From NCBI RefSeq assembly GCF_024055715.1, contig NZ_JAMXMV010000001.1, positions 620,001 to 684,000 on the forward strand: 64,000 nt of DNA, read 5' to 3'. Origin of the DNA: Actinoallomurus soli. Its GTDB lineage: Bacteria; Actinomycetota; Actinomycetes; Streptosporangiales; Streptosporangiaceae. Shown here piece by piece: positions 5,960-43,975 of this stretch. Position numbers and translations under genes: made by a program. The notes below the pieces were generated by a model. The model searched no databases, was not told the DNA's origin, and saw nothing but the letters and a program-made list of their open reading frames with translations. Numbering within the stretch: the stretch's first letter is position 1; each line of letters begins with the position of its first letter.

Positions 5960-6727
5960 TCAGTACTTCGGCCCCACGAACTCATCCAGCCGCGCCACCG
6001 CCTCCCTCCGCGCGATTGAGATCGTCTTCCGGTTCATCTGCTTCCATGCGATCCCGAGCCGATCCAGTGCATCCGTGAACAGTCGGCGGATGTCCGCCGA
6101 CTCGTTGACGAACGTGTAGCGCGGGTACTCGTACCAACGATCGCCGCCCTTCAGCGGGCGCCGTACACGGTTCATGGAACGGCAACCATCCGAATGGATG
6201 AGCCCCCGGACGAACTCTTCGGCGAATTTCGTGACTATGTCCTCCTGCCATACGGCTAGCGCGATCTTCCTCGTGTGCTTCATCCCTGGTCCGTGCTGGG
6301 GGAACAGGCAGGGGAGATGCTTCGAGAGGACTCCGACCATCGTGCAGCCCTGCCTCTGGCGGTAGCCGACCGCATTAGATGGCATGACGGCCTTAATCGC
6401 CTCCGCGGCTGCGTGGATGAGTCCGGGCCAGGCGTCACAGCAGGCGATCTCGAGGCGGAAGACGTCTTTGGGGCAATGCACGATATGCCCGTCTCCGAGA
6501 TAGAGGCCGAGCAGGTAGGCGTAAGACTGCTCATCGAGGGACCGCTCGTGGCACCGAGGGCAGTCGAACTTTCGAGGAGCTGCCTGCTTGCTGCGCCGAG
6601 TGCCGTACTTCCAGTGCCGGACAGCGCCGATGGAGACGCCGCACATCCGAGCGACCTCACGGTCTGTGAATCCCCGGCGGGACAGGGTTAAAGCCCGCTC
6701 CAGGATGCGTCTGTCGTACATACGCAT
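5960..6727 (-). CDS. HTH - double-motif LAGLIDADG homing-endonuclease-like protein
   Basis: 255 residues. Residues 10-42 form a helix-turn-helix of resolvase/MerR style (FTDREVARMCGVSIGAVRHW). A CPRC knuckle follows at 56-59. Two LAGLIDADG helices are visible: YLLGLYLGDG (71-80) and FVRGLIHSDG (172-181), each ending in the acidic residue that binds metal in homing endonucleases. Two motifs in one chain imply a monomeric enzyme with pseudo-twofold symmetry. It is free-standing and not within an intron or intein. The start lies 60 bp downstream of the 3' end of tRNA-Leu, in the same direction. Codon use is visibly less GC-biased than in neighbouring genes and includes a TTA codon (codon 13), which suggests horizontal arrival. 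It could instead be a domesticated DNA-binding regulator; cleavage activity is inferred only from the motifs. Confidence 0.8.
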   Translation of the reverse strand: MRMYDRRILERALTLSRRGFTDREVARMCGVSIGAVRHWKYGTRRSKQAAPRKFDCPRCHERSLDEQSYAYLLGLYLGDGHIVHCPKDVFRLEIACCDAWPGLIHAAAEAIKAVMPSNAVGYRQRQGCTMVGVLSKHLPCLFPQHGPGMKHTRKIALAVWQEDIVTKFAEEFVRGLIHSDGCRSMNRVRRPLKGGDRWYEYPRYTFVNESADIRRLFTDALDRLGIAWKQMNRKTISIARREAVARLDEFVGPKY

Positions 6728-6786
6728 AGTGTTGCGCTGCGGTACGACAGAATGTTGCCGTTAGTAAGTGGCCGGTCACGAATGGG

Positions 6787-6869
6787 TACCGGGAGCGGGA
6801 CTCGAACCCGCACGTCCTTTCGGACAGACGCTTTTGAGGCGTCCTTGTCTACCATTCCAACATCCCGGC
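6787..6869 (-). tRNA. tRNA-Leu (anticodon CAA)
   Basis: Reading the minus strand from 6869, the sequence folds into a class II tRNA. The acceptor stem GCCGGGA pairs with TCCCGGT (one G-U pair at the end). The anticodon stem GACGC/GCGTC holds loop CTCAAAA, giving anticodon CAA (plus-strand 6834-6836). There is a long variable arm (TGTCCGAAAGGACG) and the T-loop GGTTCGAGTCC. The discriminator is A; the next bases are CCC, so CCA is added after transcription. A -10-like TACAAT (6882-6887) lies 12 bases upstream of the 5' end. Leucine class is assigned from the anticodon, the variable arm and A73. Confidence 0.93.
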
Positions 6870-6881
6870 ATTTTCCCCGAC

Positions 6882-29852: not shown

Positions 29853-30557
29853 GTGAGCGAGCGAGCCATGGGCGAGGCCCTGCGGGTGGTCATCGCCGAC
29901 GATCAGGCGCTCGTCCGCACCGGGTTCGCGATGATCCTGGCCGCCGAGGGGATCGATGTCGTCGGTGAGGCCGCCGACGGCGCGCAGGCTGTCGACGAGG
30001 TTCGCAGAACCCGGCCCGACGTCGTCCTCATGGACATCCGGATGCCCGAGGTCGACGGGCTGGAGGCCACGCGGCGCATCCTGTCCGCCGGCTCGCACGC
30101 GCCGCGCGTCATCATCCTGACCACGTTCGACCTCGACCGGTACGTCTACGCGGCGCTCGCCGCAGGCGCCAGCGGGTTCCTCCTCAAGGACGTCTCACCC
30201 GAGCACCTGGTCGCCGCCGTCCGGCTGGTCCGGTCCGGTGACGCGCTGCTCGCCCCGAGCATCACCCGTCGCCTCATCGAGCGGTTCGCCCGTCACGACG
30301 ACCAGCGCCCGACCCTGCATCGCGACCTGTCGACGCTCACGCCACGAGAGCTCGACGTACTCCGGCTGCTGGCCCGCGGGCTCAGCAACGCCGAGCTCGC
30401 CGGCAGGCTGCAGGTCAGCGACGCGACCGTGAAGACCCACGTGACACGGATCCTGTCCAAGCTCGGCCTCCGCGACCGCGCCCAGGCGATCGTCGTCGCC
30501 TACGAGACGGGCCTCGTCGTCCCGGGAGGAGCCGGGGGTGTGGAGAGCGTGACGTGA
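29853..30557 (+). CDS. LuxR/NarL-family response regulator
   Basis: 234 residues. The receiver domain has the acidic pocket IADDQ, phosphoacceptor Asp61 in VVLMDIRMP and Lys in FLLKD. The C-terminal LuxR helix-turn-helix reads LTPRELDVLRLLARGLSNAELAGRLQVSDATVKTHV. GTG at 29853 has AAGGA upstream; the internal ATG at 29868 is an alternative. It is the cognate partner of the kinase encoded 55 bp upstream, and the likely target is the divergent ABC exporter operon. Confidence 0.93.
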   Translation: MSERAMGEALRVVIADDQALVRTGFAMILAAEGIDVVGEAADGAQAVDEVRRTRPDVVLMDIRMPEVDGLEATRRILSAGSHAPRVIILTTFDLDRYVYAALAAGASGFLLKDVSPEHLVAAVRLVRSGDALLAPSITRRLIERFARHDDQRPTLHRDLSTLTPRELDVLRLLARGLSNAELAGRLQVSDATVKTHVTRILSKLGLRDRAQAIVVAYETGLVVPGGAGGVESVT

Positions 30558-30721
30558 CTCCGGATCGGTACGTATGGTGACATCCGGCACTGCCGAATCG
30601 GTGACGTCCTGTGCGCGTGCCCGGTCGGCGGGGCATGCTCTTTCGGTGTAGGCTCGCGCGGTCCGGGCGGCGGCGGCCGACGACGCAGTTCACGACAAGG
30701 CCGATATCCCCGGAGATCTTG

Positions 30722-32248
30722 ATGGGGCGAGTGGACCGTTCACTGGAAGCGGATCGTGCACCGATGGAACGCGGCGTCGTCGCGTTGCTGGGCAACTGGC
30801 CGGCCGGCCGTGGCCCGCTCTACCAGCGCCTGGCCGACGCGGTGCGCCGCGCGGTCGAGGACGGCCTGCTGCATCCCGGAGACCGCATGCCGTCCGAGCG
30901 CCGTCTCGCCGACGCGCTCCGCGTGAGCCGGACCACGGTGGTCGGGGCCTACGACCGGCTGCGCTCGGACGGGCTGCTCGTGAGCCGGCGGGGCAGCGGC
31001 ACGCGGATCGCGGCGACCGCACGCCCGCACCGCCGCGTCATGGACCGCCGGGTGCCGGGCGGGACCGCGACGGCCGTGTTCCAGCGGCTGATCGACGGAC
31101 CGGACCAGGTGATCTCCCTGACCACTACGGTCGAGGGCGCCGTTCCGGAGCTGGAGGAGGTGCTGCGCGACCTCGCCGCCGAGGACCTGACCGACCTGCT
31201 GGCCGACCCCGGCTACCATCCGTGCGGTCTGCCCGAGCTGCGCACCGTGCTGGCGGAGCGGATGACCCGCGACGGCCTGCCCACCGTCGCCGACGAGATC
31301 CTCGTGACGACCGGGGCGCACCAGGCCATCGCGCTCGTCGCCGACCTGTACCTCGGCTCGGGCGGCACCGTGCTCGTGGAGACGCCGAACTGGCCCGGTT
31401 GCCTCGACGTCTTCCGTGCCCGCGGCGCGCGGCTGCGCATGGTGCCGGTGGACGACGAGGGCGCCGACGCCGACGCCGTGGCGGCGGCCCTGGCGGCCGG
31501 ATCGCCCCGGCTGCTCTACGTGATGCCGACCTACCACAACCCGACCGGCGTGCTGATGTCGGCGGCCCGGCGGCGGCGCATCGCCGAACTGGCCGCCCGC
31601 CACGACGTTCCGGTGCTGGAGGACAACGCCTACGTCCGGTACGAGGAGTCGGCGGAGCCGCTGCGGCCGCTGGCCGGGTATGCGCCGCCGGGCGCGGAGG
31701 TGCTGTCGGTGGGTTCGCTGGCCAAGACGGTGTGGGCCGGGCTGCGGATCGGGTGGGTGCGCGCCCCCGCCGAGGTCGTGCAGCGCCTCGCGCGGCGGAA
31801 GGTGCTGGCCGACATCGCCGGCCCGGTGCTCGACCAGGCCCTGGCCGCCCGGCTCGTTCCCCGGCTGGAGGAGATCACGCGCGCTCGCGCCCCGGAGCTG
31901 GCCCGGCGCCTCGACCACGTGGAGGCGCTGCTCCGCGACCGGCTGCCCCGCTGGCGGTGGCGCCGCCCGGACGGCGGCGGCGCGCTGTGGATCGAGCTGC
32001 CCGGCGTGGACGCCGACACTTTCGCGCAGGTGGCGCTCAGGCACGGGGTCGAGGTGGTGCCCGGGTCGGTGATGGACCCCGGCCGGGCGCACGACTCCCA
32101 CATCCGGGTCCCCTTCACGCTGCCCCGGGAACGGCTCGACGTGCTCGTGCACCGGCTCGCCCGCGCCTGGGCCGAGATCGAGCGCGACGGCCCGGTGGCG
32201 GCTCGGGACGGGGGCGGGACCGAGCGCGGCGGGCCGATCGTGGCGTAG
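30722..32248 (+). CDS. MocR-type GntR regulator with aminotransferase domain
   Basis: About 508 residues. An N-terminal GntR winged helix (about 20-95; MPSERRLADALRVSRTTVVGAYDRL) is joined to a fold-type I PLP aminotransferase-like domain (about 115-500). The PLP lysine lies in GSLAKTVWAGLRIGW. PdxR and GabR are the known members and regulate vitamin B6 or GABA genes. ATG at 30722 follows GGAG at six bases. The neighbours do not include pdx genes; the flanking operon does contain a PLP enzyme (TrpB2-like), which may be a coincidence. Confidence 0.9.
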   Translation: MGRVDRSLEADRAPMERGVVALLGNWPAGRGPLYQRLADAVRRAVEDGLLHPGDRMPSERRLADALRVSRTTVVGAYDRLRSDGLLVSRRGSGTRIAATARPHRRVMDRRVPGGTATAVFQRLIDGPDQVISLTTTVEGAVPELEEVLRDLAAEDLTDLLADPGYHPCGLPELRTVLAERMTRDGLPTVADEILVTTGAHQAIALVADLYLGSGGTVLVETPNWPGCLDVFRARGARLRMVPVDDEGADADAVAAALAAGSPRLLYVMPTYHNPTGVLMSAARRRRIAELAARHDVPVLEDNAYVRYEESAEPLRPLAGYAPPGAEVLSVGSLAKTVWAGLRIGWVRAPAEVVQRLARRKVLADIAGPVLDQALAARLVPRLEEITRARAPELARRLDHVEALLRDRLPRWRWRRPDGGGALWIELPGVDADTFAQVALRHGVEVVPGSVMDPGRAHDSHIRVPFTLPRERLDVLVHRLARAWAEIERDGPVAARDGGGTERGGPIVA

Positions 32249-32270
32249 GACGGGAGCGGGTCCCTGCGGG

Positions 32271-32735
32271 TCACCGTTTGACCAGGTCGGCGAAGACCGG
32301 CCGCACCACCTCGATCAGGTCGGCGGCCTGTGCCGTCAGGGTCTCGTCGGCCCGGCCGCTGCCGAAGTGGACCGTCGCCATGTCGCGCACGGAGACGTCG
32401 AAGACGATCTGGGTGCCGGGCAGGCCGGTCAGGGGGCTGACACCGCCGGGCTCCATGCCGAGCTCCGCCAGGTCGCCGGGCCCGGCCTGGCGCAGGGCCG
32501 CCCTCGGCAGCCCGGCGGCCTTGGCGAGCGGGCCGTAGGCGACGCGGGACAGGATCGGCAGCGAGGCGAGGACGAATCCCGTCTCGGAGCGGAACGCCAT
32601 CGTCTTGAGGAGGAGCTCCGGCGGCAGTTTCAGCTCCCGTTCGATGTCCTCATAGGTGCGGATCGGCGGGTGCGTGAACGAGGAGAACGCGATGCCGGCC
32701 GCGCTCAGCATCTCCGCCGGAGTGGGCAGCGTCAT
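32271..32735 (-). CDS. YbaK/ProX-family aminoacyl-tRNA deacylase-like protein
   Basis: 154 residues of the YbaK/EbsC domain family. Family members hydrolyse mischarged tRNAs such as Cys-tRNA(Pro) or Ala-tRNA(Pro) in trans. The characteristic lysine is probably in ELLLKTMAFRSE, and the closing region has GSGRADETLTAQAADLI. It is the last gene of the pyrrole-operon strand: its ATG overlaps the MaoC-fold stop (ATGA). A deacylase here could be a passenger, or could hydrolyse an aminoacyl/prolyl adduct; the latter is speculative. Confidence 0.75.
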   Translation of the reverse strand: MTLPTPAEMLSAAGIAFSSFTHPPIRTYEDIERELKLPPELLLKTMAFRSETGFVLASLPILSRVAYGPLAKAAGLPRAALRQAGPGDLAELGMEPGGVSPLTGLPGTQIVFDVSVRDMATVHFGSGRADETLTAQAADLIEVVRPVFADLVKR

Positions 32736-33154
32736 GCGGAGGACATTACGCGTCTCCTGACGAGGCTGTAAAAGGTCATGCGCATCACCGGCCGGTCCCG
32801 GTCATCGGAGAGCTCACCGCGCTGCCGGACGACACCGCAGTCCGGCCGGGACAGCGACGGTGCGACGTCGAGCACCGTCGCCCTGCCCGAGAGCACGTCG
32901 CCGGGCCGGACGGGGCGCAGCCAGGCCAGCTCGTCGATGCCCGGGGAGAGGTCCACGGCCGTGTCCCGCAGCACGGCGTCGACGTACAGGCGCATGAACA
33001 CGCCGGCCACCTGCCAGCCGCTGGCGATCGTGCCGTCGAGGTGCGGGACCTGCGGATCGTACGACCGGGCGAACCGCGTGATGTCCGCCTCCGACAGGCT
33101 CATGCGGCCGAGCTCGTGGACCTCGCCGATCCGGACGTCCTCCAGGTGCCGCAT
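32732..33154 (-). CDS. MaoC-fold (hotdog) dehydratase-like protein
   Basis: 140 residues with a single hotdog domain. ITRFARSYDPQVPHLD matches the MaoC hydratase active site, in which Asp and His of D-P-x(3)-H activate water; here the spacing is D-P-Q-V-P-H. The substrate strand is WLRPVRPGDVLSGRATV. Such proteins hydrate enoyl thioesters. Its start overlaps the amidohydrolase stop (TGATG) and its stop overlaps the YbaK-like start, so it is translationally coupled on both sides. Confidence 0.8.
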   Translation of the reverse strand: MRHLEDVRIGEVHELGRMSLSEADITRFARSYDPQVPHLDGTIASGWQVAGVFMRLYVDAVLRDTAVDLSPGIDELAWLRPVRPGDVLSGRATVLDVAPSLSRPDCGVVRQRGELSDDRDRPVMRMTFYSLVRRRVMSSA

Positions 33155-34023
33155 CAGGTGAACCTCCCGAACAGGGCCCGTGCGTGATCCGGACCGCTCA
33201 TCGCGCGCAGCGTCGAGGCCACCACCGGCTCGGGCATGAACGGATAGTCGGTGCCGAACAGGATGTGCGACTCGTCGGTGACCGTCCGCAGGCAGGCCAG
33301 CGCGCCCGCCGACGCGGACTGCGCCATCTCGTAGTACGGCCGGCGCAGGTCGTCGCGCACCTGTCGCGCGTCGGCGCCGGGGACGACCCACTCGCCGGCC
33401 AGCTCGAACCGCTGGGCGAGGTACGGGACCGCGCCGCCGCCGTGCGCCAGGATGAACCTGACGTCCGGGCAGCGGCGCAGCGTGCCGCCGAACAGCAGGC
33501 CCGCCACCGCCCGGGTGGTGTCCATGACGAAGTCGACGAGAGGCGGCGGGACGCCCGGTCCGGTGCAGGAGCATCCGTACGCCGGGTTGGGATGCACGAA
33601 GACCACCGCCCGCCGCCGGTTCAGCTCGTCGAAGAGCGGCGCCAGCGACGGGTCGCCCAGCAGCCGGCCGTCGGGCAGGCTGGCGCTCAGCACCACGCCG
33701 TCCATCTCCAGGACGTCCAGGGCATGGGCGAGCTCGTCGAACATCGCGTCCGGATCGCCCATCGGCAGCGAGGCCAGCCCGGCGAACCGGTCGCCGAGGA
33801 GTTCGGCGGTCCACTCGTTCACCCGCCGGACCAGCCCGGCCGACGGCCGGGCCGCGTCCGGCAGCAGCACCGACAGCACCGCCCCGTCCAGGCCGTTCCG
33901 GTCCAGGACCCGGAGCGAGTCCTCCGGCGTCCACGTGGGCACCGGCACGCCCGGGGCCATCTCGGCGACGCCGAGCTCGTCGGCCAGCCGGGCGTGGTAG
34001 GCGTGGTGGTGGACGTCGATCAC
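33154..34023 (-). CDS. ACMSD-type amidohydrolase/decarboxylase
   Basis: 289 residues, amidohydrolase_2 fold. Metal-binding residues are visible in order: DVHHHAY (H-x-H), [19 protein letters not shown] and FGTDYPF (catalytic Asp). This set defines the 2-amino-3-carboxymuconate semialdehyde decarboxylase / gamma-resorcylate decarboxylase group, which mostly performs metal-dependent, non-oxidative decarboxylation and sometimes hydrolysis. The GTG start overlaps the TrpB2-like stop by four bases. In a pathway that begins with a carboxylated heteroaromatic, decarboxylation is a plausible role; the substrate is inferred, not shown. Confidence 0.85.
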
Positions 34024-35381
34024 CGGGCGACCTGGGGCAGCTCGTTCAGCGCCGCCTCCAGCTCGTGCTGCGGCGTCTCGTAGTCCTCCAGCCGTCCGGC
34101 CAGGAACGCGTCGAACGCCGCCAGGTCGAAGTGCCCGTGACCGGAGAACCCGAACAGGATCGTGCGCGCCTCACCGGCCTCGCGGGCGGCCACGGCCTCC
34201 TCGACCGCGCCGCGCAGCGCGTGCGAGGACTCCGGCGCCATCAGGAACCCCTCGCTGCGGGCGAAGCGGACCGCTTCGGTGAACACCGCGGTCTGGTCGT
34301 AGGCGCGGGCCTCGACGTGTCCCTGGTCGTACAGCGCGCACAGCGTCGGCGCGTCGCCGTGGAAGCGCAGACCGCCCGCGTGGATCGGCGGGGGGATGAA
34401 CCCGCGCCCGACGGTGTGCATGGGCAGCAGCGGGCCCAGGCCGGCCGTGTCGGGGTGGTCGTAGGCGTAGCGGCCCTGGGTGAGCGTCGGGCACGCCGTC
34501 GGCTCGGCGGCCACGAAACGCGTCGCCGGGCGGTCCCCGGACAGCCGGTCGGCCATGAACGGGAACGCCAGGCCGGAGAAGTTGGAGCCGCCGCCGACGC
34601 AGCCGACGACGACGTCGGGGTAGTCGCCGGCCATCTCCAGCTGGCGCTTGGCCTCGATGCCGATCACGGTCTGGTGCAGCACGACGTGGTTCATCGCCGA
34701 GCCGAGGGCGAACCGGGTGTCGTCCCGGCTGAGCGCGTCCTCGACCGCCTCGGCGATGGCCATGCCGAGGCTGCCCGGGGAGTCGGGGTCCTTGGCGAGG
34801 ACGTCGCGGCCCGCCTGGGTCAGGTCGGTCGGCGACGCGAACACCTGACCGCCCCAGGTCTCCATCAGCGACCGGCGGTACGGCTTCTGGTGGTAGGAGG
34901 ACTTCACCATGTAGACGGCGACCTCGACGCCGAACAGCGCCCCCGCGAACGACAGCGCCGAGCCCCACTGCCCGGCCCCGGTCTCGGTGGTGACCCGGCG
35001 CACGCCCTGCCGGGCGTTGTAGTAGACCTGCGGCACCGCGGTGTTCGGCTTGTGCGAGCCCGCCGGGGACACGCCCTCGTACTTGAAGTAGATCTTCGCC
35101 GGGGTGTCCAGCGCGCGCTCGAGCCGGTCCGCCCGGTACAGCGGCGTGGGCCGCCACATCCGGTAGATGTCACGGACCTCGTCGGGGATGTCCACCCAGC
35201 GCTCCTGCGTGAACTCCTGGTCGATCACCGCGTCCGGCAGCAGGGACGTCAGGTCCTCCCGGGCCAGCGGCTCATGGGTGACCGGGTGCAGGTACGGCTT
35301 CAGCGGCACGGGCAGGTCGGGGAGGATGTTGTACCAGCGGTCCGGCAACCCGTCCTCGGTGAGCACGAACTTCTTCATCAC
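34020..35381 (-). CDS. TrpB2-like PLP-dependent beta-elimination/replacement enzyme
   Basis: 453 residues, the length of the TrpB2 branch of tryptophan synthase beta subunits. The PLP lysine is Lys111 in GSHKPNTA. The catalytic Glu lies in [10 protein letters not shown] and the phosphate loop is [10 protein letters not shown]. TrpB2 enzymes join indole or another nucleophile to an amino-acrylate formed from serine or phosphoserine, without a TrpA partner; none is encoded nearby. Start ATG-ATG with AAGGA upstream. It lies 15 bp after the halogenase gene, so here it may use a pyrrole-type nucleophile. That role is inference. Confidence 0.88.
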
Positions 35382-35396
35382 ACGTGTCCTTCCTCG

Positions 35397-36737
35397 TCAG
35401 AACAGCGGGGCCTGGCTCGGCGCGCGGAGCGTGCCGAGATGCCGGTGCCACAGGTGGTCCGGGTTCTCCTCGACCTGGCGGGTGATCTCCCGCATCTTGG
35501 TGAGCGCGGCCGGTTCGCCGCCGTCGTAGACGTCGCCCTGGAGCATCTTCAGCACGTCGATCCGGTACCGGGGGTCGGCGACGAAGGCGGTGAACAGGAT
35601 GTTCAGCCGGTAGTAGATGGAGATGAACTCGTACCAGTTGCGCACGGCCCGGCGCAGCCGGCCCTCGTACGCGTCGAACGACGGCTTGCCGAAGTCGCCC
35701 TTCTCAGCGGCGGCGATGATGTCGTACGACGCGATGCGGGCGCTGTTCATGGCCACGCTGACGCCGCTGGAGAAGATCGGGTCGACGAAGCGCGCGGCGT
35801 CGCCGATGAGCATCCACCGGTCACCGCAGATCTCCCGCATGGCGTAGCTGTAGTCGCCCTCGGGGCGGAACGGCCGCACCCGCTCGGCGGCGCGCAGCGC
35901 GTCGGCGAGCTCCGGGCGGCTCTCCACGCACTGCCAGAAGAACCCCTTCCAGTCCTGCTTCGCGGCGGTGAACTGCTGCTTCTGGGTGACCACGCCGACG
36001 CTCGTGACGGTGTCGGTGATCGGGATCTGCCAGACCCACGTGTCGGTCACCGGCAGGAAGTGGATGAAGATGAAGTCGGCCTGTTTCTTGTCCGCCGAGA
36101 GCGCGGAACGATCCAAACCGTCGAACCACGTGTGGATCGCGTACTGGTTGAAGACCGGGTCGGGGACCTTCAGTTTGAGCTGCCGGCCGAGGAAGGTGTT
36201 ACGCCCGCTCGCGTCCACCACCATCCGCACCCGCACGTCCGTCTCGCGGCGGCCCATGGCGAAGACCACGCGAGGGTCGTCGCCGAGGTCGGCGTGGCGG
36301 ACCCGTACGCCCTCGTAGACCTTGGCGCCCAGCGACTCCGCGTGCTGCAGGAGCAGCAGGTCGAACTTGCCGCGGTCCACGTGGTAGGTGTAGTCCTGCT
36401 TCACACCCGGCTGGTCGCGCTCGCTGAACGCCACCTCGGCCGCCTGGAACCCGTGCGACAGCTCGAAGCCGAGTGTGGGGATCCGCGAGTCGGCCGCCGA
36501 CGTCCACGCCGCACCGTACTTCCGCGGGAAGCCGCCGGTGTCCACCTTCTCCAGCGCGCCGATGTCGGCCAGCACCGGCGTGGTGGCCGGGATCAGCGAC
36601 TCTCCGACATGGGGGCGGGGGAACAGCGCGCTCTCGAAGACGACGCACGACAGGCCGGCCTGCGACAGGTACGAGGCGAGGGTGGAGCCGGCCGGCCCGC
36701 CGCCGATGATGCCGATGTCGAAATCAACGTCCGCCAC
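35397..36737 (-). CDS. FAD-dependent halogenase, carrier-protein (PltA-like) type
   Basis: 446 residues. The FAD site is GGGPAG (12-17). Halogenase hallmarks are present: a lysine in the F-x-x-K-Y-G context (Lys73) that forms the chloramine in this family, the W-x-W-x-I-P motif (Trp234, Trp236, Ile238-Pro239) that suppresses monooxygenation, and DPIFSSG (319-325). Those features are shared by PltA, CmlS and other halogenases acting on carrier-bound substrates. The tail is shorter than in tryptophan halogenases. GTG start with GGGAG eight bases upstream; it overlaps the carrier-protein gene by 14 bp, which fits a partner relationship. Predicted role: halogenation of pyrrolyl-S-carrier protein. 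A flavin reductase must come from elsewhere. Confidence 0.88.
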   Translation of the reverse strand: MADVDFDIGIIGGGPAGSTLASYLSQAGLSCVVFESALFPRPHVGESLIPATTPVLADIGALEKVDTGGFPRKYGAAWTSAADSRIPTLGFELSHGFQAAEVAFSERDQPGVKQDYTYHVDRGKFDLLLLQHAESLGAKVYEGVRVRHADLGDDPRVVFAMGRRETDVRVRMVVDASGRNTFLGRQLKLKVPDPVFNQYAIHTWFDGLDRSALSADKKQADFIFIHFLPVTDTWVWQIPITDTVTSVGVVTQKQQFTAAKQDWKGFFWQCVESRPELADALRAAERVRPFRPEGDYSYAMREICGDRWMLIGDAARFVDPIFSSGVSVAMNSARIASYDIIAAAEKGDFGKPSFDAYEGRLRRAVRNWYEFISIYYRLNILFTAFVADPRYRIDVLKMLQGDVYDGGEPAALTKMREITRQVEENPDHLWHRHLGTLRAPSQAPLF

Positions 36738-36984
36738 GATCGCACTCCCTCACCAAACGGCTGATGCTCGCCAGGTCTTTGAAGTTGTCACCGACCATTT
36801 CGCTCATCGGTATCTCCACGCCGAACTGATCGCGGATGAAACCGACGAGCCTGGTGGTGGTGAGCGAGTTGAGAATTCCGAGCTCGAGGAGCGGAGTGTC
36901 CGGTTCTATCGCCACTTCGGAAGTGTCAAGAATCTTCTCCTCGATGAATTTTTGGAGGATTTCGAGCTCGTCCTGCTGTCCCAT
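36724..36984 (-). CDS. Acyl/peptidyl carrier protein (PltL-like)
   Basis: 86 residues forming one four-helix carrier domain. The phosphopantetheine serine is Ser40 in LGILNSL, followed by helix II RLVGFIRDQFGVEI. It reads LNS where many carriers read LDS. ATG at 36984 has GGGAG seven bases upstream. It heads the minus-strand operon and is divergent from the dehydrogenase and adenylation genes. Free-standing carriers of this kind receive L-proline in pyrrole-forming cassettes. Confidence 0.9.
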   Translation of the reverse strand: MGQQDELEILQKFIEEKILDTSEVAIEPDTPLLELGILNSLTTTRLVGFIRDQFGVEIPMSEMVGDNFKDLASISRLVRECDRGGR

Positions 36985-37179
36985 CCGAAGCTCCCGCCCC
37001 TGCGGTCCGGTCCGTCGGGGTGACGCTACCGTCCCCGTTGACCGGCTGTCTTCCGTAGGAGTGGCGAATTTCCGGGCGGCCGGCTCCGCCGTTCGGCCAG
37101 TGGCCTCCGCCGAACTGATGAGTCGGTTCCGGCTTTTTTGTCGAGGACACCCGCCGAAGGTGCTTCTAAACTGCTTTAC

Positions 37180-38295
37180 ATGCATTTGGAGGAGCGGGAC
37201 ATCTACCACCGATTCAGCAAGAGAATTGACGGGCATCCGGTGCCGGCGCCCGGTTACCTGACCCGGGAGGAATGGCAGTGGGCGGCCGGGACCGGACTCG
37301 CCGGACTGAGCGTTTCGCAGACTTACGGCGGGGGTGGGCACGGATTCGCCGCCACGGCCCAGGCCGCGGAGGCGTTCGGGCGGCATCACCCGGACATGGG
37401 GCTGGTGTTCGCCGTTCTGGCGCACCTGTTCGCCTGCGCGATGCCGATCGCCGAGCACGGCGATCCGGCCCTGCGCGAGCGCGTGCTCCCCCGCCTGTGC
37501 TCGGGGGAGTGGATCGGCGCGAACGCCATCACGGAGGAGGGCGCGGGCTCCGACGCGACCGCCCTGGCCACCCGCGCCGTACGGGACGGGGACGAGTACG
37601 TGCTCACGGGCGCCAAGTCCTTCGTCAGCAACGGCCCGATCGCGGACGTCTTCGTCGTGTACGCCAGCACCCGGCCCGAGTTCGGCCATCTGGGCGTCTC
37701 GGCGTTCGTGATCGAGCGGGGGACGCCGGGACTCACGGTCGGCGAGCCGTTCGGCAAGGCGGGCCTGGTCCGCTGCCCGGCCGGCGAACTGCGTCTCGAC
37801 GGGTGCCGGGTCCCGGTCGGCGCGCGCCTGGGCGCCGACGGGCAGGGCGCGGCGATCTTCCAGTCCGCCATGCGCTGGGAGCGGACCTGCCTGTTCGCGG
37901 CCTACCTCGGGCAGTCCGAGCGGCTGCTGGACCGCTGTGTGGAGCACGCCCGTGAGCGCCGCCAGTTCGGCCGGCCGCTCGCGGCGAACCAGGCCGTCTC
38001 CCACCGGATCGGCCGGATGCGGGTCCGTCTCGACGCCGCCCGCCTCCTGCTCGAACGCGCGTGCGCGCGCCTCGACCAGGGGGAGCGGGCCGTTCTCGAC
38101 GTCGCGATGGCCAAGCTGGCGGTCAGCGAGAACGCCGTGGCGACGACCCTGGACGCCCAGCACATCTTCGGCGGCGCCGGTGTCCGTGAGGACGCCGGGA
38201 TCGCCAAGGACGTACGGGACGCGCTGCCCTGCACCACCTTCTCCGGCACCTCGGAGATGCAGCTCGAACAGATCGCCGAGGAGATGGGGCTGTGA
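37180..38295 (+). CDS. Acyl-CoA dehydrogenase-like prolyl-S-PCP dehydrogenase (PltE-like)
   Basis: About 371 residues of the acyl-CoA dehydrogenase fold. The blocks MGLVFAVLAHLFACAMPI, NAITEEGAGSDATAL, KSFVSNGPIADVFVVYAS, WERTCLFAAYLGQSERLL and ERRQFGRPLAANQAVSHRI resemble PltE/RedW enzymes more than fatty-acid dehydrogenases. Those flavoproteins oxidise L-prolyl-S-PCP by four electrons to pyrrolyl-2-carboxyl-S-PCP. The catalytic segment near the C-terminus reads FSGTSEMQ rather than the EGT of acyl-CoA dehydrogenases, as I recall for PltE. ATG at 37180 is chosen by length; TTG at 37138 would add 14 residues, and neither has a clear ribosome-binding site. GTGA overlap joins it to the adenylation gene. 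Confidence 0.87.
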   Translation: MHLEERDIYHRFSKRIDGHPVPAPGYLTREEWQWAAGTGLAGLSVSQTYGGGGHGFAATAQAAEAFGRHHPDMGLVFAVLAHLFACAMPIAEHGDPALRERVLPRLCSGEWIGANAITEEGAGSDATALATRAVRDGDEYVLTGAKSFVSNGPIADVFVVYASTRPEFGHLGVSAFVIERGTPGLTVGEPFGKAGLVRCPAGELRLDGCRVPVGARLGADGQGAAIFQSAMRWERTCLFAAYLGQSERLLDRCVEHARERRQFGRPLAANQAVSHRIGRMRVRLDAARLLLERACARLDQGERAVLDVAMAKLAVSENAVATTLDAQHIFGGAGVREDAGIAKDVRDALPCTTFSGTSEMQLEQIAEEMGL

Positions 38296-39707
38296 GGCTC
38301 GAGCAGCTCCTGCGCGCGCACGCGCGCTCGTCCGCTCCGGCGGTCGACGGTGTCGGGTACGCCGAGCTCGACGCGCGGGCCGACGCCCTGGCCCGGGAGC
38401 TGGCCGCGCTGGGCGTACGCCGGGGCGACCGCGTCGCGTTCTGGCTCGACAAGAGCCCGTACGCGGTGGCGGTCATGCAGGCGGTGCTGCGGCTGGGAGC
38501 CGCGTACGTGCCGGTCGACCCGGTCGCGCCCGCCGGCCGGGCCGCAGCCGTCATCCGCGACTGCGCCCCGCGCGTCGTCGTCAGCGACCGCGCCGGCGAA
38601 CTGCGCGCGGAGGGGATCACGGCCACGACCCCGGCCGGGCGGCCCGGCGGCCCGCTGCCCGCCCACGACGGCACGGAGGACGATCTCGCCTACATCCTGT
38701 ACACGTCGGGGTCCACCGGGGCGCCGAAGGGGGTGTGCATCTCCCACCGCAACGCGATGGCGTTCGTCGAGTGGGCCGCCGGCGAGCTGGGAGCCCGCCC
38801 GGACGACCGGTTCGCCAACCACGCGCCGTTCCACTTCGACCTGTCGGTCCTCGACCTGTACGTGGCGTTCCACGCCGGGGCCTCGGTCCAGCTGATCCCG
38901 CGCGAGGCGGCGTACGCGCCGCGGCTGCTCGTCGAGTTCCTGGTCCAGCGTGGGATCACCGTCTGGTACTCGGTTCCGTCCGCGCTCGTCCTGATGGCGC
39001 GCGACGGGGGGCTGCTCGACGTGCGGCCGCCCGCGCTGCGGGCGCTCCTGTTCGCCGGCGAGCCCTATCCGGTGACCCACCTGCGGCGGCTCCGCGAGCA
39101 CCTGCCCGGCATCCGGTTCCTGAACCTGTACGGCCCCACCGAGACCAACGTCTGCGCCTTCTACGAGGTGACCGATCTGCCGGCCGAGCCGGTGCCCATC
39201 GGCACGGCCTGTTCCGGGGACCGGATCCATGCCGTGCGCGAGGACGGCTCGGCCGCGGCGCCCGGCGAGGAGGGCGAACTGGTCGTCGAGGGGCCCACGG
39301 TGATGCTCGGCTACTGGGGCCGCCCGCCGCAGACCGGCCCGTACCCGACCGGCGACCGCGTCGTCCTCCGCGACGGGGTGTACCACTACCTCGGACGGCG
39401 TGACGGGATGGTGAAGGTACGCGGTCACCGGATCGAGCTCGGCGACGTGGAGTCCGCGCTCCTCACCTGCCCGGGGGTGTCCGAGGTCGCGGTCGTGGTC
39501 TCCGGCGCCGGGCTCGACGCGCGGCTGGTCGCGTACGTGGTGCCGGGCGAGGATCGGCGGCCGAATCTGCTCGAGCTCAAGCGGCACTGCGCCGACCGGC
39601 TGCCCCGGTACATGATCGTGGATTCGGTCCGCTACGTGGCCGCGCTGCCCCGTACGGGCAACGGAAAGACCGACCGCCGCCGGCTCACCGTCGAGGCGGC
39701 GCCGTGA
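38292..39707 (+). CDS. Stand-alone L-proline adenylation enzyme (PltF-like)
   Basis: 471 residues, one ANL adenylation domain with no condensation or thiolation domain. The ATP loop is YTSGSTGAPKG, core A5 is LYGPTET, A8 is GRRDGMVKVRGHRIELG and the catalytic lysine lies in GNGKTDRR. Aligned by eye to PheA, the pocket residues read D-L-L-Y-L-A-L-V-C-K (starting with HFDLSVLD). From memory this is the code of proline-activating enzymes of pyrrole pathways such as PltF and RedM. It would make prolyl-AMP and load the PltL-like carrier. GTG start overlaps the dehydrogenase stop. Confidence 0.9.
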   Translation: MRLEQLLRAHARSSAPAVDGVGYAELDARADALARELAALGVRRGDRVAFWLDKSPYAVAVMQAVLRLGAAYVPVDPVAPAGRAAAVIRDCAPRVVVSDRAGELRAEGITATTPAGRPGGPLPAHDGTEDDLAYILYTSGSTGAPKGVCISHRNAMAFVEWAAGELGARPDDRFANHAPFHFDLSVLDLYVAFHAGASVQLIPREAAYAPRLLVEFLVQRGITVWYSVPSALVLMARDGGLLDVRPPALRALLFAGEPYPVTHLRRLREHLPGIRFLNLYGPTETNVCAFYEVTDLPAEPVPIGTACSGDRIHAVREDGSAAAPGEEGELVVEGPTVMLGYWGRPPQTGPYPTGDRVVLRDGVYHYLGRRDGMVKVRGHRIELGDVESALLTCPGVSEVAVVVSGAGLDARLVAYVVPGEDRRPNLLELKRHCADRLPRYMIVDSVRYVAALPRTGNGKTDRRRLTVEAAP

Positions 39708-39836
39708 CCGCCGGGTCCCCGGTCGTCCCGGCGAGCCCGTGACGGACGAGCCGGGCGACCCCGCCGCGCGGCCCGGTCGATCGACTCGGCCGGGCCGGCC
39801 GCCCGGTGGGGTCGATCGAGTCCGCGAGCCCGCTGC
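39708..39836. other. Convergent gap with palindromic repeats
   Basis: 129 bp between the adenylation gene and the transporter gene. GTCGATCGAC at about 39777-39786 is self-complementary, and a related GTCGATCGAG follows about 40 bp later with GC-rich inverted sequence between. It is the likely bidirectional termination zone of the two convergent operons. Confidence 0.35.
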
Positions 39837-40763
39837 TCAGCCCGTTCGGCCGGCCGTCTCCTCGACGACCGGGCCGACCGGCTCGGAGCCGTCCGGACGA
39901 CGCGTCCGCAGTCCGAGGAGCAGCCCGGCGATGACCAGGGCGGCGCCGGCGACGTCGGCCCACGAGGGATGCCCGGTCCCCAGCACCATCGTGGAGATGA
40001 TCGCGCCCACGGGGAGGAACCCGGAGAACAGCCCGGCGCGTTCGGGCCCCAGCCGGGGCAGCGCGTCGTACCAGCAGAAGAACGCGAAGGCGGTCACGAC
40101 GACGGCGAGGTAGCCGAGTGCGCCCGCCTCCGACGCCGTCGGCACCCGCAGGGCGTGCCGGCCGTCGGTGACGAGACCGGCGATCAGCAACAGCGGCACG
40201 GCCGCCACGGCGGAGTACGCGGAGACGCGGATGGCGCCGAGCCGGGGCAGCAACGGCAGCGCCAGGAGCGAGAACCCGACCTCGCCGCCGAGCGCGCCGA
40301 GTGCCAGCAGCAGCCCGAGGGCGGCGCCGCCGCCGAAACCGGTGGCGATGGCCGCGCCGCTCGCCACGACGACGGCCGCCGCCACCAGGTTCCGGCGCGG
40401 CCGTTCCCCCTCCATGAACGGCCCCACCACTGCCAGGACGATCGGCACGGTGGCCACGATCGTCCCTACCGTCGCCGGATCCGCGTACCGCGTGGATTCG
40501 ACGATGAAGACGTTGAAGGCGGCCAGCCCGGTGAGCGCCAGCAGGATCACCAGGCCGACCTCGCGGAGGCTCAGCCGCAGATGCCTGATGCCGCGGAACC
40601 GCGCGACCAGCATGAGCAGCAGCGCCCCTACGGCGTAGCGGATCGCCTGGCCGCCGTAGACGGGATAGTGGTGTAACGCGGGCGAGACTGCGGTCAGCGT
40701 CCCCACGCAGAACATGGCCGTGGCCGCGCCCACTCCTCCTCGGATGCCCCGCATGCCCATCAC
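39837..40763 (-). CDS. DMT-superfamily (EamA) exporter with a TTA codon
   Basis: 308 residues with ten membrane helices arranged as two EamA repeats, the form of drug/metabolite exporters. The end of the first repeat holds ADPATVGTIVATVPI and the second EVGFSLLALPLLPRLGAIRV. GTG at 40763 or ATG at 40760 may start it. Codon 30 is TTA (40674-40676), rare in this DNA. It lies 55 bp after the LuxR regulator on the same strand and converges on the adenylation gene. Likely role: efflux of the cluster product; this is inferred from position. Confidence 0.8.
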   Translation of the reverse strand: MMGMRGIRGGVGAATAMFCVGTLTAVSPALHHYPVYGGQAIRYAVGALLLMLVARFRGIRHLRLSLREVGLVILLALTGLAAFNVFIVESTRYADPATVGTIVATVPIVLAVVGPFMEGERPRRNLVAAAVVVASGAAIATGFGGGAALGLLLALGALGGEVGFSLLALPLLPRLGAIRVSAYSAVAAVPLLLIAGLVTDGRHALRVPTASEAGALGYLAVVVTAFAFFCWYDALPRLGPERAGLFSGFLPVGAIISTMVLGTGHPSWADVAGAALVIAGLLLGLRTRRPDGSEPVGPVVEETAGRTG

Positions 40764-40818
40764 GATCGCAGCAGGGCCGAGTCGAGCAAAGATCCATTGG
40801 ACGGCGAAGTGGACTGCT

Positions 40819-41487
40819 TCATCGCGCTTGCGCCGACTTGCGACCAGAGGGGAGCTCTGCCGGATTGCTGCCGATCTCTACGAGGCCCGTCTCGTAGGCG
40901 TAGATCACGGCGGCCACACGGTTACGGAGACGCAGCTTGCTCAGCAGGCTCTGCACATGAGACTTGACGGTGCTCTCGCTCACGGAGAGTTCTTTCGATA
41001 TCTCCGCATTCGACCGGCCGCGGGCCAGGAATCGGAGGACGTCGAGTTCGCGCCGCGTCATTCTTTCGGCCTCCGCGTCCGCGCGATCGGCGTTCGGCCC
41101 TCTGCGGGCCGGGCCGAGGAAGGAGTACCCGGCGGAGAGCATGCGGATCGCGGCGCGGAACTCCTCGGGGTCGGCGCTGGTCAGGAGCAGGCCGACCGAC
41201 TCGGGCTGCTCACGTGGGTCCGGGCCGGGCGGGTCGCTGAGCACTAAGGACCGGCCGCGGATCGCGCCGATCCGCGCGATGGCCCTTAATGGGTCGGGGT
41301 GGTCGGCGAGCTGGCCGACGACCGTGACGTCCGGTTTGAGATCGTCGATGGCCGCCGCCGCCTCGGCGTAGTCACACGCCTCGCCGATCAGCGCGAGGTC
41401 GGCCGACTCCTGGATGATTTTCTTCAGGCCGAAACGCACCAGACCACGGCGTTCGGCGAGCAGGACGGTGATCTGAGAACGTGACAC
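40819..41487 (-). CDS. LuxR-family regulator with atypical receiver domain and two TTA codons
   Basis: About 222 residues. The C-terminal LuxR HTH is intact (MTRRELDVLRFLARGRSNAEISKELSVSESTVKSHV). The N-terminal domain keeps the receiver shape, but the acidic pocket ADD is replaced by AER and the phosphoacceptor position in KPDVTVVGQL is Gly, so phosphorylation is not expected. Codons 67 and 81 are TTA (41287-41289, 41245-41247), which in streptomycetes makes translation depend on the bldA tRNA. GTG at 41487 is chosen because it starts the receiver fold. Such orphan regulators usually control the adjacent biosynthetic genes. Upstream lie a TTGACT-N17-TCATAT promoter and a direct 12-bp repeat. 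Confidence 0.85.
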   Translation of the reverse strand: MSRSQITVLLAERRGLVRFGLKKIIQESADLALIGEACDYAEAAAAIDDLKPDVTVVGQLADHPDPLRAIARIGAIRGRSLVLSDPPGPDPREQPESVGLLLTSADPEEFRAAIRMLSAGYSFLGPARRGPNADRADAEAERMTRRELDVLRFLARGRSNAEISKELSVSESTVKSHVQSLLSKLRLRNRVAAVIYAYETGLVEIGSNPAELPSGRKSAQAR

Positions 41488-41499
41488 GCTGCTACCTAG

Positions 41500-41526
41500 G
41501 AGGCGTTCCCGTGAGAGGCGTTCCCG
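41500..41526. repeat. Direct repeat GAGGCGTTCCCG in the regulator leader
   Basis: GAGGCGTTCCCG occurs at 41500-41511 and again at 41515-41526, a period of 15 bp, starting 13 bp upstream of the regulator GTG. Two same-orientation copies fit binding by a protein dimer or an mRNA-level element. Autoregulation is an inference. Confidence 0.4.
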
Positions 41527-41578
41527 GAAGTACCCACAATCCAACCCCCGTCGTGCGCGGTCGTACCGCTTCGCACCA

Positions 41579-41607
41579 ATATGACGCTCTGTGGTCAAAT
41601 TAGTCAA
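41579..41607 (-). promoter_or_regulatory. Promoter of the LuxR regulator, TTGACT-N17-TCATAT
   Basis: On the minus strand TTGACT (41607-41602) and TCATAT (41584-41579) are 17 bases apart. The surrounding 41575-41640 stretch is a notable AT-rich island in this GC-rich region. CCAATATG occurs twice (41577-41584 and 41615-41622). The predicted leader is about 85 nt. Confidence 0.55.
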
Positions 41608-41860
41608 GTAAAGCCCAATATGTGGGATTTATGTCGCCTTGCGTGGTCGTGGGGTCATGCGGTGTGGTCACGTCGCCGTGCGACGGGCGGGTACGCCGGG
41701 GCGCGCGGTGCCAGGGCCCCGGACGCCTTGGGCGCTCGGGCGGGCCGGAATGTCGGCGGCGGGGCGTAGGTTGAACCACGTAGCGGGGACCGTGGCCGTC
41801 GGCCCGCCCGATCCAGGAGCCGCCGAGGCGGCCAGCGAGCGCATCAAGCGAAGGAGCATC

Positions 41861-43975
41861 GTGCGGCCTGTCACCGATCTTCAGCGGAAGGTGGCGCCCT
41901 TCGAGGTCGTCACCGAGATGACCCCGTCCGGCGACCAGCCGGCGGCGATCGCCGAGCTGGAACAACGCGTCAAGCGCGGCGACAAGGACACCGTCCTCCT
42001 GGGCGCGACCGGCACCGGCAAGACCGCGACGGTCGCCTGGCTGATCGAGAAGGTCCAGCGCCCGACCCTGGTCATGCAGCCGAACAAGACGCTCGCCGCG
42101 CAGTTCGCCAACGAGCTGCGCGAGATGCTGCCCCACAACGCCATCGAGTACTTCGTCTCCTACTACGACTACTACCAGCCCGAGGCGTACGTCCCGCAGA
42201 CCGACACCTACATCGAGAAGGACTCCTCGATCAACGACGAGGTGGAGCGGCTGCGGCACTCGGCCACCAATTCCCTGCTGACCCGCCGCGACACGATCGT
42301 GGTCGCGTCGGTGTCCTGCATCTACGGCCTGGGCACCCCGCAGGAGTACGTCGACCGCATGGTCCGCCTGCGGGTCGGAGACGAGATCGAGCGGGACGAG
42401 CTGCTGCGCCGCCTCGTCGCGATGCAGTACGCCCGCAACGACCTGGCGTTCACCCGCGGCACGTTCCGGGTGCGCGGCGACACGATCGAGATCATCCCGC
42501 AGTACGAGGAGCTCGCCGTCCGCATCGAGATGTTCGGCGACGAGATCGAGAAGCTCGCCACGCTGCACCCGCTGACCGGCGAGGTGATCACCGAGGACGA
42601 GGAGCTGTACATCTTCCCCGCCTCCCACTACGTCGCCGGCCCGGAGCGCATGGAGCGCGCGATCAACGGCATCGAGACGGAGCTGGAGCAGCGGCTCGCC
42701 GAGATGGAGCGGCAGGGCAAGCTGCTGGAGGCGCAGCGGCTGCGGATGCGCACCACGTACGACATCGAGATGATGCGGCAGGTCGGCACCTGCTCCGGCA
42801 TCGAGAACTACTCCCGTCACATCGACGGACGCGGTCCCGGCACCCCGCCCAACACCCTCCTCGACTACTTCCCGGAGGACTTCCTCCTCGTCATCGACGA
42901 GTCGCACCAGACCACGCCGCAGATCGGCGCGATGTACGAAGGCGACATGTCGCGCAAGCGGACGCTCGTCGACCACGGGTTCCGGCTCCCGAGCGCGATG
43001 GACAACCGCCCCCTGAAGTGGGAGGAGTTCTTGGAGCGCATCGGGCAGACGGTGTACCTCTCGGCGACGCCCGGGCCGTACGAACTGGGCCGGGTCAAGG
43101 GCGACGTGGTCGAGCAGGTCATCCGCCCGACCGGCCTGGTCGACCCCGAGGTGATCATCAAGCCGACCAAGGGGCAGATCGACGACCTGGTCCACGAGAT
43201 CCGGGAGCGCGCCGACCGGGACGAGCGGGTGCTGGTCACCACGCTGACCAAGAAGATGGCCGAGGACCTCACCGACTACCTCCTGGAGCTCGGCATCCGG
43301 GTGCGCTACCTCCACAGCGAGGTCGACACGCTCCGCCGGGTCGAGCTGCTGCGCGAGCTGCGGCTGGGGGAGTTCGACGTCCTGGTCGGCATCAACCTGC
43401 TCCGTGAGGGCCTCGACCTGCCGGAGGTGTCACTGGTCAGCATCCTCGACGCCGACAAGGAGGGGTTCCTGCGCTCGGAGACCTCGCTGATCCAGACCAT
43501 CGGCCGCGCCGCCCGAAACGTCTCCGGCCAGGTCCACATGTACGCCGACAAGGTCACCCCGTCGATGGAGCGGGCGATCGACGAGACCAACCGGCGGCGC
43601 GCCAAGCAGATGGCCTACAACGAGGCGAACGGCATCGAGCCGACGGCCCTGCGCAAGAAGATCGCCGACATCCTCGACATGCTGGCCCGGGAGGACGCCG
43701 ACACCGAGGAGCTGATCGGCGGTGGCGGGCGGCAGCAGAGCCGGGGCAAGGCCCCCGTGCCGGGCCTGTCCTCCAAGCAGCGGGCCGGCCGGCACGCGGC
43801 CGACCTCGTCGGTGAGCGGCCACGCGAGGAGATGGAGGCCCTCATCGACCAGATGACGCAGCAGATGCACCACGCGGCGGAAGAGCTGCAGTTCGAGATG
43901 GCGGCCCGGCTCCGCGACGAGATCAAGGAGCTCAAGCGCGAGCTGCGCGACATGAAGGAGGCCGGCGTCCACTGA
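41861..43975 (+). CDS. uvrB: Excinuclease ABC subunit B
   Basis: About 704 residues. Walker A GATGTGKT (about 46-53), the beta-hairpin [12 protein letters not shown] that inserts between DNA strands, the helicase motif DESH, SATPG, and motif [11 protein letters not shown] are all intact. The C-terminal UvrC-binding UVR domain is present ([22 protein letters not shown]). UvrB verifies damage with UvrA and recruits UvrC. GTG at 41861 follows AAGGAG at four bases and gives the family start [16 protein letters not shown]; extensions to 41639 are non-coding. In M. tuberculosis uvrB also follows coaE. Confidence 0.97.

What the first reader, a model, noticed from the sequence alone, without database searches (positions are those of the whole stretch)
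40674..41289. Three TTA codons in the cluster regulator and exporter suggest bldA control
The LuxR regulator has TTA at codons 67 and 81 and the adjacent DMT exporter at codon 30, in a gene-dense region where TTA is very rare. In Streptomyces this pattern delays antibiotic clusters until the bldA tRNA is active.
Basis: partly seen in the sequence, partly recalled or inferred. Interest (0 to 1): 0.6.

Follow-up and report, generated by a model that had tools for sequence, protein, structure and literature searches.

The report
Rare TTA codons, unusual leucine tRNA
A small imported gene cluster, probably for a halogenated pyrrole, carries three copies of a very rare leucine codon in its regulator and exporter; this looks mostly like baggage of its origin, but the tRNA that must read the codon has a different shape from the famous Streptomyces one while sitting at the same place in the genome.

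Summary
In 2.25 Mb sampled from this 9.42-Mb genome, TTA occurs in 39 of 1865 genes, none of them a core growth gene.

The bldA reading is only partly supported. For it: a single UUA tRNA, at the bldA locus, and TTA codons lie unusually near gene starts. Against it: 0 of 20 AdpA-like (DJ-1/AraC) genes read has TTA; orthologous clusters lack these TTAs (LuxR 0 of 4, DMT 0 of 2); TTA tracks low GC3, and the share of regulators equals that of GC3-matched controls (13/39 vs 11/36). The cluster is an ~11-kb island absent from 5 of 5 congeners examined. I favour acquired rare codons, at most a passive brake.

The surprise is the decoder. The only tRNA-Leu(UAA) and tRNA-Leu(UAG) are class I (76 nt, short variable loop), not class II like Streptomyces bldA. 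The UAA form matches in 85 of 90 genomes of the family (anticodon read in 18 of them). A 2023 review says tRNA-Leu keeps the long arm everywhere except animal mitochondria; my paper searches showed no account of this. That it still acts as a UUA gate is unproven.

The parts
40819..41487 (-). LuxR/NarL-type regulator (222 aa) with two TTA codons; receiver half not recognised by Pfam
   Evidence: GerE domain 2e-18, no Response_reg hit; relatives VraR/NarL; relatives lie within 6 kb of close halogenase orthologs in G087, G113, G028, G060
41287..41289 (-). TTA, LuxR codon 67
41245..41247 (-). TTA, LuxR codon 81
39837..40763 (-). EamA/DMT-family transporter, presumed exporter, one TTA
   Evidence: EamA 1e-23; 74% ortholog in G087 and 75% in G113
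40674..40676 (-). TTA, DMT codon 30 (20 from the GTG at 40733)
   Evidence: CTG (Leu) in the G087 ortholog
38292..39707 (+). Stand-alone adenylation enzyme, like prolyl-carrier-protein ligase
   Evidence: best solved relative 6o6e, L-proline--[L-prolyl-carrier protein] ligase, 2.7e-140
37186..38295 (+). Acyl-CoA-dehydrogenase-like enzyme, like prolyl-carrier-protein dehydrogenase
   Evidence: 6cxt 3.5e-88 and prolyl-carrier dehydrogenases 5zw0, 4irn
36724..36984 (-). Carrier protein (PP-binding)
   Evidence: scanned as 36724-37023
35397..36737 (-). Flavin-dependent halogenase of the ChlB4/PltA group
   Evidence: 7fco ChlB4 3.7e-207, 5buk, 5dbj PltA 6.5e-188; 24 of 341 family genomes at E<=1e-80, own included
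34020..35381 (-). PLP enzyme (PALP; TrpB2-like by recalled motif)
   Evidence: 81% in the G087 cluster
33154..34023 (-). Amidohydrolase
   Evidence: 60% in G087
32732..33154 (-). MaoC-like protein
   Evidence: weak, at cut-off; 63% in G087
32271..32735 (-). tRNA-editing-domain (YbaK-like) protein; no match in the G087 cluster
30764..32248 (+). GntR/aminotransferase (MocR-type) regulator
   Evidence: 68% in G087
30560..41890 (.). Approximate span of the island between a response regulator (29868-30557) and uvrB (41891-43975)
   Evidence: no match to the island's biosynthetic and DMT genes upstream of uvrB in 5 of 5 congeners examined

Best explanation
The LuxR-type regulator and EamA exporter belong to a horizontally acquired ~11-kb cluster for what is probably a halogenated pyrrole-type compound. 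Their three TTA codons are mainly a by-product of that origin: LuxR has unusually low GC3, and low-GC3 genes carry TTA in this genome whatever their function. The codons are read, as leucine, by the cell's only UUA tRNA, a class I tRNA-Leu(UAA) at the bldA locus. One gene copy for a codon used about 7 times in 10,000 leucines may make them a passive brake on translation, but nothing here shows a dedicated bldA-type timing switch. Shown: the codons, their rarity, the single tRNA with its class and locus, the island, the lack of conservation. Inferred: the brake, the product class, the exporter role, direction of transfer.
For: TTA rises steeply as GC3 falls, from 0.3% of genes above 0.96 to 23% below 0.80; LuxR GC3 0.829 is at the 2nd percentile. 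Island missing upstream of uvrB in 5 of 5 congeners, halogenase missing in 7 of 7, and a syntenic cluster in G087 of another genus. TTA absent from LuxR in 4 of 4 orthologous clusters read (one, G113, read in two frames) and from DMT in 2 of 2; where DMT has TTA, G087 has CTG. Regulators among TTA genes 13 of 39, among scanned GC3- and length-matched genes without TTA 11 of 36 (my tally). 0 of 20 DJ-1/AraC genes read with TTA.
Against: Only LuxR has low GC3; DMT is ordinary (0.925) and still has a TTA (P=0.015), and LuxR has more than its GC3 predicts (P=0.0035). TTA is biased to gene starts (27 of 43 in the first 100 codons against 14.6; 16 of 32 against 9.2 beyond codon 20), unlike other AT-rich codons of the same genes, ratios 0.85-1.17; composition does not explain that. 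Other genes of orthologous clusters do carry TTA: a Na/H exchanger in G087 (two) and the adenylation gene in G028 (one).
Confidence: 0.5

Rival explanations
1. bldA-type temporal switch: charged tRNA-Leu(UAA) becomes available late, so LuxR and the exporter are translated only in stationary or developing mycelium and the cluster stays silent until then.
For: Single UUA tRNA at the bldA locus; TTA very rare and not in core genes (and the Pfam scans); TTA concentrated near gene starts, a bias PMC4255298 describes for Streptomyces only; TTA in the cluster regulator and its neighbour; another two-TTA NarL-type regulator beside a cyanophycin synthetase gene that has one TTA.
Against: 0 of 20 DJ-1/AraC genes read has TTA; TTA not conserved in LuxR or DMT orthologs; regulator share no higher than in matched controls; the tRNA is of another class; PMC4255298 (passages) doubts a developmental role outside Streptomycineae. 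No expression data.
Confidence: 0.25
2. Selected static throttle: the rare codons cap the amount of regulator, and so of product, at all times, as AGA codons in pltR do for pyoluteorin in Pseudomonas protegens.
For: Same kind of cassette (PltA/PltF-like genes) and a rare-codon-rich cluster regulator; in Pf-5 recoding pltR raised pyoluteorin 15-fold and extra cognate tRNA raised it too (PMC4836200, abstract and outline seen). LuxR has more TTA than its composition predicts.
Against: Only two rare codons in LuxR; no conservation in orthologs; LuxR is not related to the LysR-type PltR.
Confidence: 0.2
3. Artefact: the TTAs are sequencing or frame errors, or a class II tRNA-Leu(UAA) was missed in a draft assembly, so nothing here is unusual.
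For: The genome is a draft of 60 contigs, completeness 98.06; one TTA in the sample, rpsL, was a start-site artefact.
Against: DMT aligns over its length to a 74% ortholog and LuxR is an open frame aligned to relatives. The class I tRNA-Leu(UAA) is 97-99% conserved in 7 of 7 congeners. In the one-contig genome G028, 55 of 56 tRNA hit regions were read and no class II Leu(UAA) or Leu(UAG) appeared.
Confidence: 0.03

Closest known systems
bldA / TTA-dependent gene expression of Streptomyces
   Same: Very rare TTA in accessory and regulatory genes; one UUA tRNA; same chromosomal neighbourhood as bldA of S. xanthophaeus; TTA biased to gene starts
   Different: tRNA is class I; AdpA-like genes read have no TTA; TTA not conserved in orthologs read; other family
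Rare AGA codons in pltR of Pseudomonas protegens Pf-5 (PMC4836200, abstract and outline)
   Same: Rare codons in the regulator of a cluster with PltA/PltF/PltE/PltL-like genes
   Different: Other codon, other regulator family, Gram-negative host; effect shown by experiment there, not here
plt-type halopyrrole cassette (pyoluteorin, marinopyrrole and relatives; product names partly recalled)
   Same: Halogenase, prolyl-carrier ligase, prolyl-carrier dehydrogenase and carrier protein by homology
   Different: No polyketide synthase seen among the called genes of the window; PLP enzyme, amidohydrolase and MaoC-like gene instead; product unknown
Short-variable-loop tRNA-Leu(TAG) of mycobacterial tRNA clusters (PMC6582537, passages)
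   Same: A class I leucine tRNA in an actinobacterium
   Different: There it is an extra copy beside a normal long-arm tRNA; here the class I forms are the only UAA and UAG leucine tRNAs found

Membership tests
bldA-controlled TTA genes | In-frame TTA in a cluster regulator | tested here: met
bldA-controlled TTA genes | TTA very rare and absent from core growth genes | tested here: met
   39 of 1865 genes in a 24% sample, none core; not a whole-genome count
bldA-controlled TTA genes | A single tRNA reads UUA | tested here: met
   one among 53 tRNA hits, all read
bldA-controlled TTA genes | That tRNA is the class II bldA tRNA | tested here: not met
   class I, 76 nt; class II in the S. xanthophaeus control
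bldA-controlled TTA genes | tRNA gene at the bldA locus | tested here: met
   next to the same gene family (41%) with six further shared neighbours, 49-78%
bldA-controlled TTA genes | TTA in adpA | tested here: not met
   0 of 20 DJ-1/PfpI loci read of 22 hits; which of them is adpA was not settled
bldA-controlled TTA genes | TTA conserved in orthologous genes (often not so in Streptomyces either, PMC4255298) | tested here: not met
   LuxR 0 of 4, DMT 0 of 2
bldA-controlled TTA genes | TTA biased to gene starts | tested here: met
   27 of 43 against 14.6 expected; 16 of 32 against 9.2 beyond codon 20; start sites are approximate
bldA-controlled TTA genes | Expression changes when the tRNA is lost or the codon recoded | not testable with these tools
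   needs experiment
plt-type halopyrrole cassette | Halogenase, prolyl adenylation enzyme, prolyl dehydrogenase and carrier protein together | tested here: met
   by sequence homology only
plt-type halopyrrole cassette | Proline activation and pyrrole halogenation by the enzymes | not testable with these tools
   needs enzyme assays

The most novel reading that the evidence does not exclude
A whole actinomycete family reads UUA (and, in the two genomes checked, CUA) with class I leucine tRNAs in place of the class II forms; the UAA one sits at the bldA locus and in this genus has C33 instead of the usual U33. It works as a weak, regulated gate on UUA-bearing accessory genes such as this LuxR: a bldA-like system on a different tRNA architecture and without a TTA in AdpA. 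The genomic half is well supported here; the gate half is not shown.
Probability: 0.18. Interest if true: 0.82.

Novelty: new variant of a known kind. Interest (0 to 1): 0.5.

Why it matters
TTA codons are often taken as a sign of bldA control of antibiotic clusters in actinomycetes. Here the codons are real, but the tRNA that reads them differs in class from bldA, the AdpA-like genes read lack TTA, and a GC3-matched control removes the apparent preference for regulators; so the inference should not be carried to this family without test. [quoted passage not shown] It makes testable how leucyl-tRNA synthetase accepts both classes in one cell, and whether UUA translation is weak by design.

Tried and rejected
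Rejected: a canonical bldA tRNA hidden in the genome. The patterns and the full tRNA list show none in this genome. In one search no match fell in the own genus (0 of 8), those in other members of the family look like chance (reversed-pattern controls are as frequent), and credible ones lie outside the family: G140 and G177 match S. xanthophaeus bldA exactly over the pattern, G160 nearly. Rejected: UUA read as another amino acid; three aligned TTAs fall on Leu (DMT; cyanophycin synthetase; ComM-like). A fourth falls on Glu or Ile and the two in LuxR on a gap and a Lys in a poorly aligned stretch; these I hold uninformative. Rejected: regulator enrichment as evidence for control (matched set: 37 genes matched to 37 of the 39 TTA genes, the window pair left out; 36 scanned, the longest left out; two control regulators come from a stretch I had fetched for its AraC gene; without such stretches the counts are 9 of 34 against 12 of 38). 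Rejected: the rpsL TTA (start-site artefact). Led nowhere: pattern GAGTTAACC (too short to mean anything); the one scan of named genome contigs gave 6 relatives, best 35%, and leaves this genome out; the edges of the island were printed but nothing was settled; one search's AraC table used wrong frames for some genes and was replaced. No structure prediction was run.

Full report
What was checked. LuxR runs 41487-40819 on the minus strand from a GTG; TTA is codon 67 and 81. The EamA/DMT gene runs 40763-39837; TTA is codon 30, or 20 if the GTG at 40733, which fits the start of its G087 relative, is the true start.

How rare. With a codon-score gene caller blind to TTA, 40 of 1865 genes of at least 100 aa held TTA. 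One, rpsL, is a start error, leaving 39 genes and 43 TTAs against about 62,750 leucine codons. By Pfam, solved relatives or lack of any match, none of the 39 is a core growth gene. TTA depends steeply on GC3. Given LuxR's GC3 (0.829) and length 0.085 TTA is expected, P(2 or more)=0.0035; DMT (GC3 0.925) P=0.015. Across the sample 1.9 genes with two or more TTA are expected and four seen.

Does TTA mark control genes? Thirteen of the 39 are regulators or kinases (my tally): two NarL-type, a SARP, four DUF5753, a TetR, two AraC, a histidine-kinase-like ATPase and two protein kinases. Of 36 scanned GC3- and length-matched genes without TTA, 11 are regulators too. So the preference follows composition. 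One feature survives controls: TTA is biased to gene starts (27 of 43 in the first 100 codons against 14.6; 16 of 32 against 9.2 beyond codon 20), while groups of other AT-rich codons in the same genes show ratios of 0.85-1.17. Genome-wide, single AT-rich codons reach 1.29 when the first 20 codons are counted and 0.83-1.11 when they are not. Start calls are approximate and a few of these TTAs may lie in false 5' extensions. PMC4255298 (passages) says such bias is absent outside Streptomycineae; this sample disagrees.

The decoder. All 53 tRNA hits of the genome were read; 43 anticodon types appear. The only Leu(UAA) (C3:253352-253427) and Leu(UAG) (C1:41317-41391) are class I, 76 nt with 5-6 nt in the variable loop (my count); Leu(GAG), (CAA) and one Leu(CAG) are class II, and there is one extra class I Leu(CAG). 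In the Streptomyces xanthophaeus control Leu(UAA) and Leu(UAG) are class II. The class I Leu(UAA) is matched in 118 of 149 relatives, 85 of 90 in the family (own genome counted), and at 97-99% in all seven congeners. Anticodon UAA was read in all 20 loci cut, the best matches, 18 of them in the family; the other 98 were not read. A pattern for class II Leu(UAA)/(UAG) finds none in the own genus (0 of 8); matches elsewhere in the family do not look like tRNAs, while G140, G160 and G177 of another family match or nearly match S. xanthophaeus bldA. In the one-contig genome G028, 55 of 56 tRNA hit regions were read: Leu(UAG) is class I, Leu(CAA), (CAG) and (GAG) class II, and no class II Leu(UAA)/(UAG) appears; the one unread hit is the class I UAA-like match.

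Same locus as bldA. In S. xanthophaeus the UAA tRNA lies just upstream of a gene starting MRSSNPVFSRRG; its 41% homolog lies just downstream of the class I tRNA here, and six more neighbours match at 49-78% in the same region. A protein with such a start lies next to the tRNA in 11 of the 20 relative loci by eye. So the class I tRNA occupies the bldA position. It has A73 and A14; A73 is the key determinant reported for E. coli tRNA-Leu, where the long arm is not needed for charging (PMC9976931, passages). The own genus has C at position 33 (loop CCTAAAA), as do several other genera, while others have CTTAAAA; C33 might weaken decoding (inference).

The cluster. Halogenase (best relatives ChlB4, 5buk, PltA), prolyl-carrier ligase, a dehydrogenase like the prolyl-carrier ones and a carrier protein form a halopyrrole-type cassette, with a PLP enzyme, amidohydrolase, MaoC-like, YbaK-like and GntR/aminotransferase genes. 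The block lies between a response regulator and uvrB. In G004 and G007 the response regulator is followed directly by uvrB; in G002, G005 and G006 another upstream gene is; none of the five has the island there. G087, of another genus, has it in the same order without YbaK and with an added Na/H exchanger. The halogenase is matched in 24 of 341 family genomes (own included) and in none of seven congeners; seven other genomes have it at 79-83%. LuxR relatives lie within 6 kb of it in four of these, G087, G113, G028 and G060; the other three were not examined. This supports a cluster regulator. None of the four LuxR genes (G113 read in two frames) and neither of the two DMT genes (G087, G113) has TTA; no DMT relative was found beside LuxR in G028 and G060. 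Yet the Na/H exchanger gene of G087 has two TTAs and the adenylation gene of G028 one. LuxR's receiver half is not recognised by Pfam, so it is unlikely to be an ordinary phosphorylated regulator (inference).

Judgement. The codons are real and rare, and there is one UUA tRNA at the bldA locus; but missing conservation, missing TTA in the AdpA-like genes read (0 of 20), the composition effect and the different tRNA class argue against simply calling this bldA control. I favour acquired rare codons acting at most as a passive brake (0.5), over a bldA-type switch (0.25) and a selected throttle of the pltR kind (0.2; PMC4836200, abstract and outline).

Novelty. The listings of paper searches showed no account of class I leucine tRNAs as the only UAA or UAG decoders of a bacterial family. 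I looked into nine papers: passages of eight (in two of them, PMC10886168 and PMC6985074, bldA occurs only in the reference list; PMC6297222, PMC7609411 and PMC4932002 gave nothing on the point) and abstract with outline of one. The nearest is an extra short-loop tRNA-Leu(TAG) in mycobacteria (PMC6582537, passages). The library lacks most subscription papers.

Noticed in passing
L024:10353-10428 (G000:C3:253352-253427): The genome's only tRNA-Leu(UAA) is class I, at the bldA locus, with C33 in the anticodon loop; matched in 85 of 90 genomes of the family.
   Followed up: yes
L027:10318-10393 (G000:C1:41317-41391); L327: The only tRNA-Leu(UAG) is class I too, here and in the one-contig genome G028.
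   Followed up: partly
L025:9980-10053 and the tRNA next to it (G000:C6:181892-182052): An extra class I tRNA-Leu(CAG) beside an odd tRNA-Met(CAT)-like gene.
   Followed up: no
L021:1900-1970 and 15236-15310: Two low-scoring tRNA-Lys(CTT) copies about 13 kb apart sharing their 3' half with the normal gene; perhaps remnants of integrated elements.
   Followed up: no
L144:1786-2391: Another NarL-type regulator with two TTA codons (15, 46), next to a cyanophycin synthetase gene that also has one.
   Followed up: partly
window 5960-6721, minus strand: A 253-aa ORF with TTA at codon 11, helix-turn-helix-like start by eye, no Pfam match, beside the tRNA-Leu(CAA) gene at 6783-6870.
   Followed up: no
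L154:1333-2757, minus strand: The orthologous cluster in G087 has a Na/H exchanger with two TTA codons where the window has none.
   Followed up: partly
L038:1474-2147: The LuxR relative in the G113 cluster is split over two frames, by a real frameshift or an assembly error.
   Followed up: no
window 33154-35381: PLP enzyme (TrpB2-like) and amidohydrolase next to the halogenase are kept in the G087 cluster (81% and 60%); their role with a halopyrrole is unexplained.
   Followed up: no
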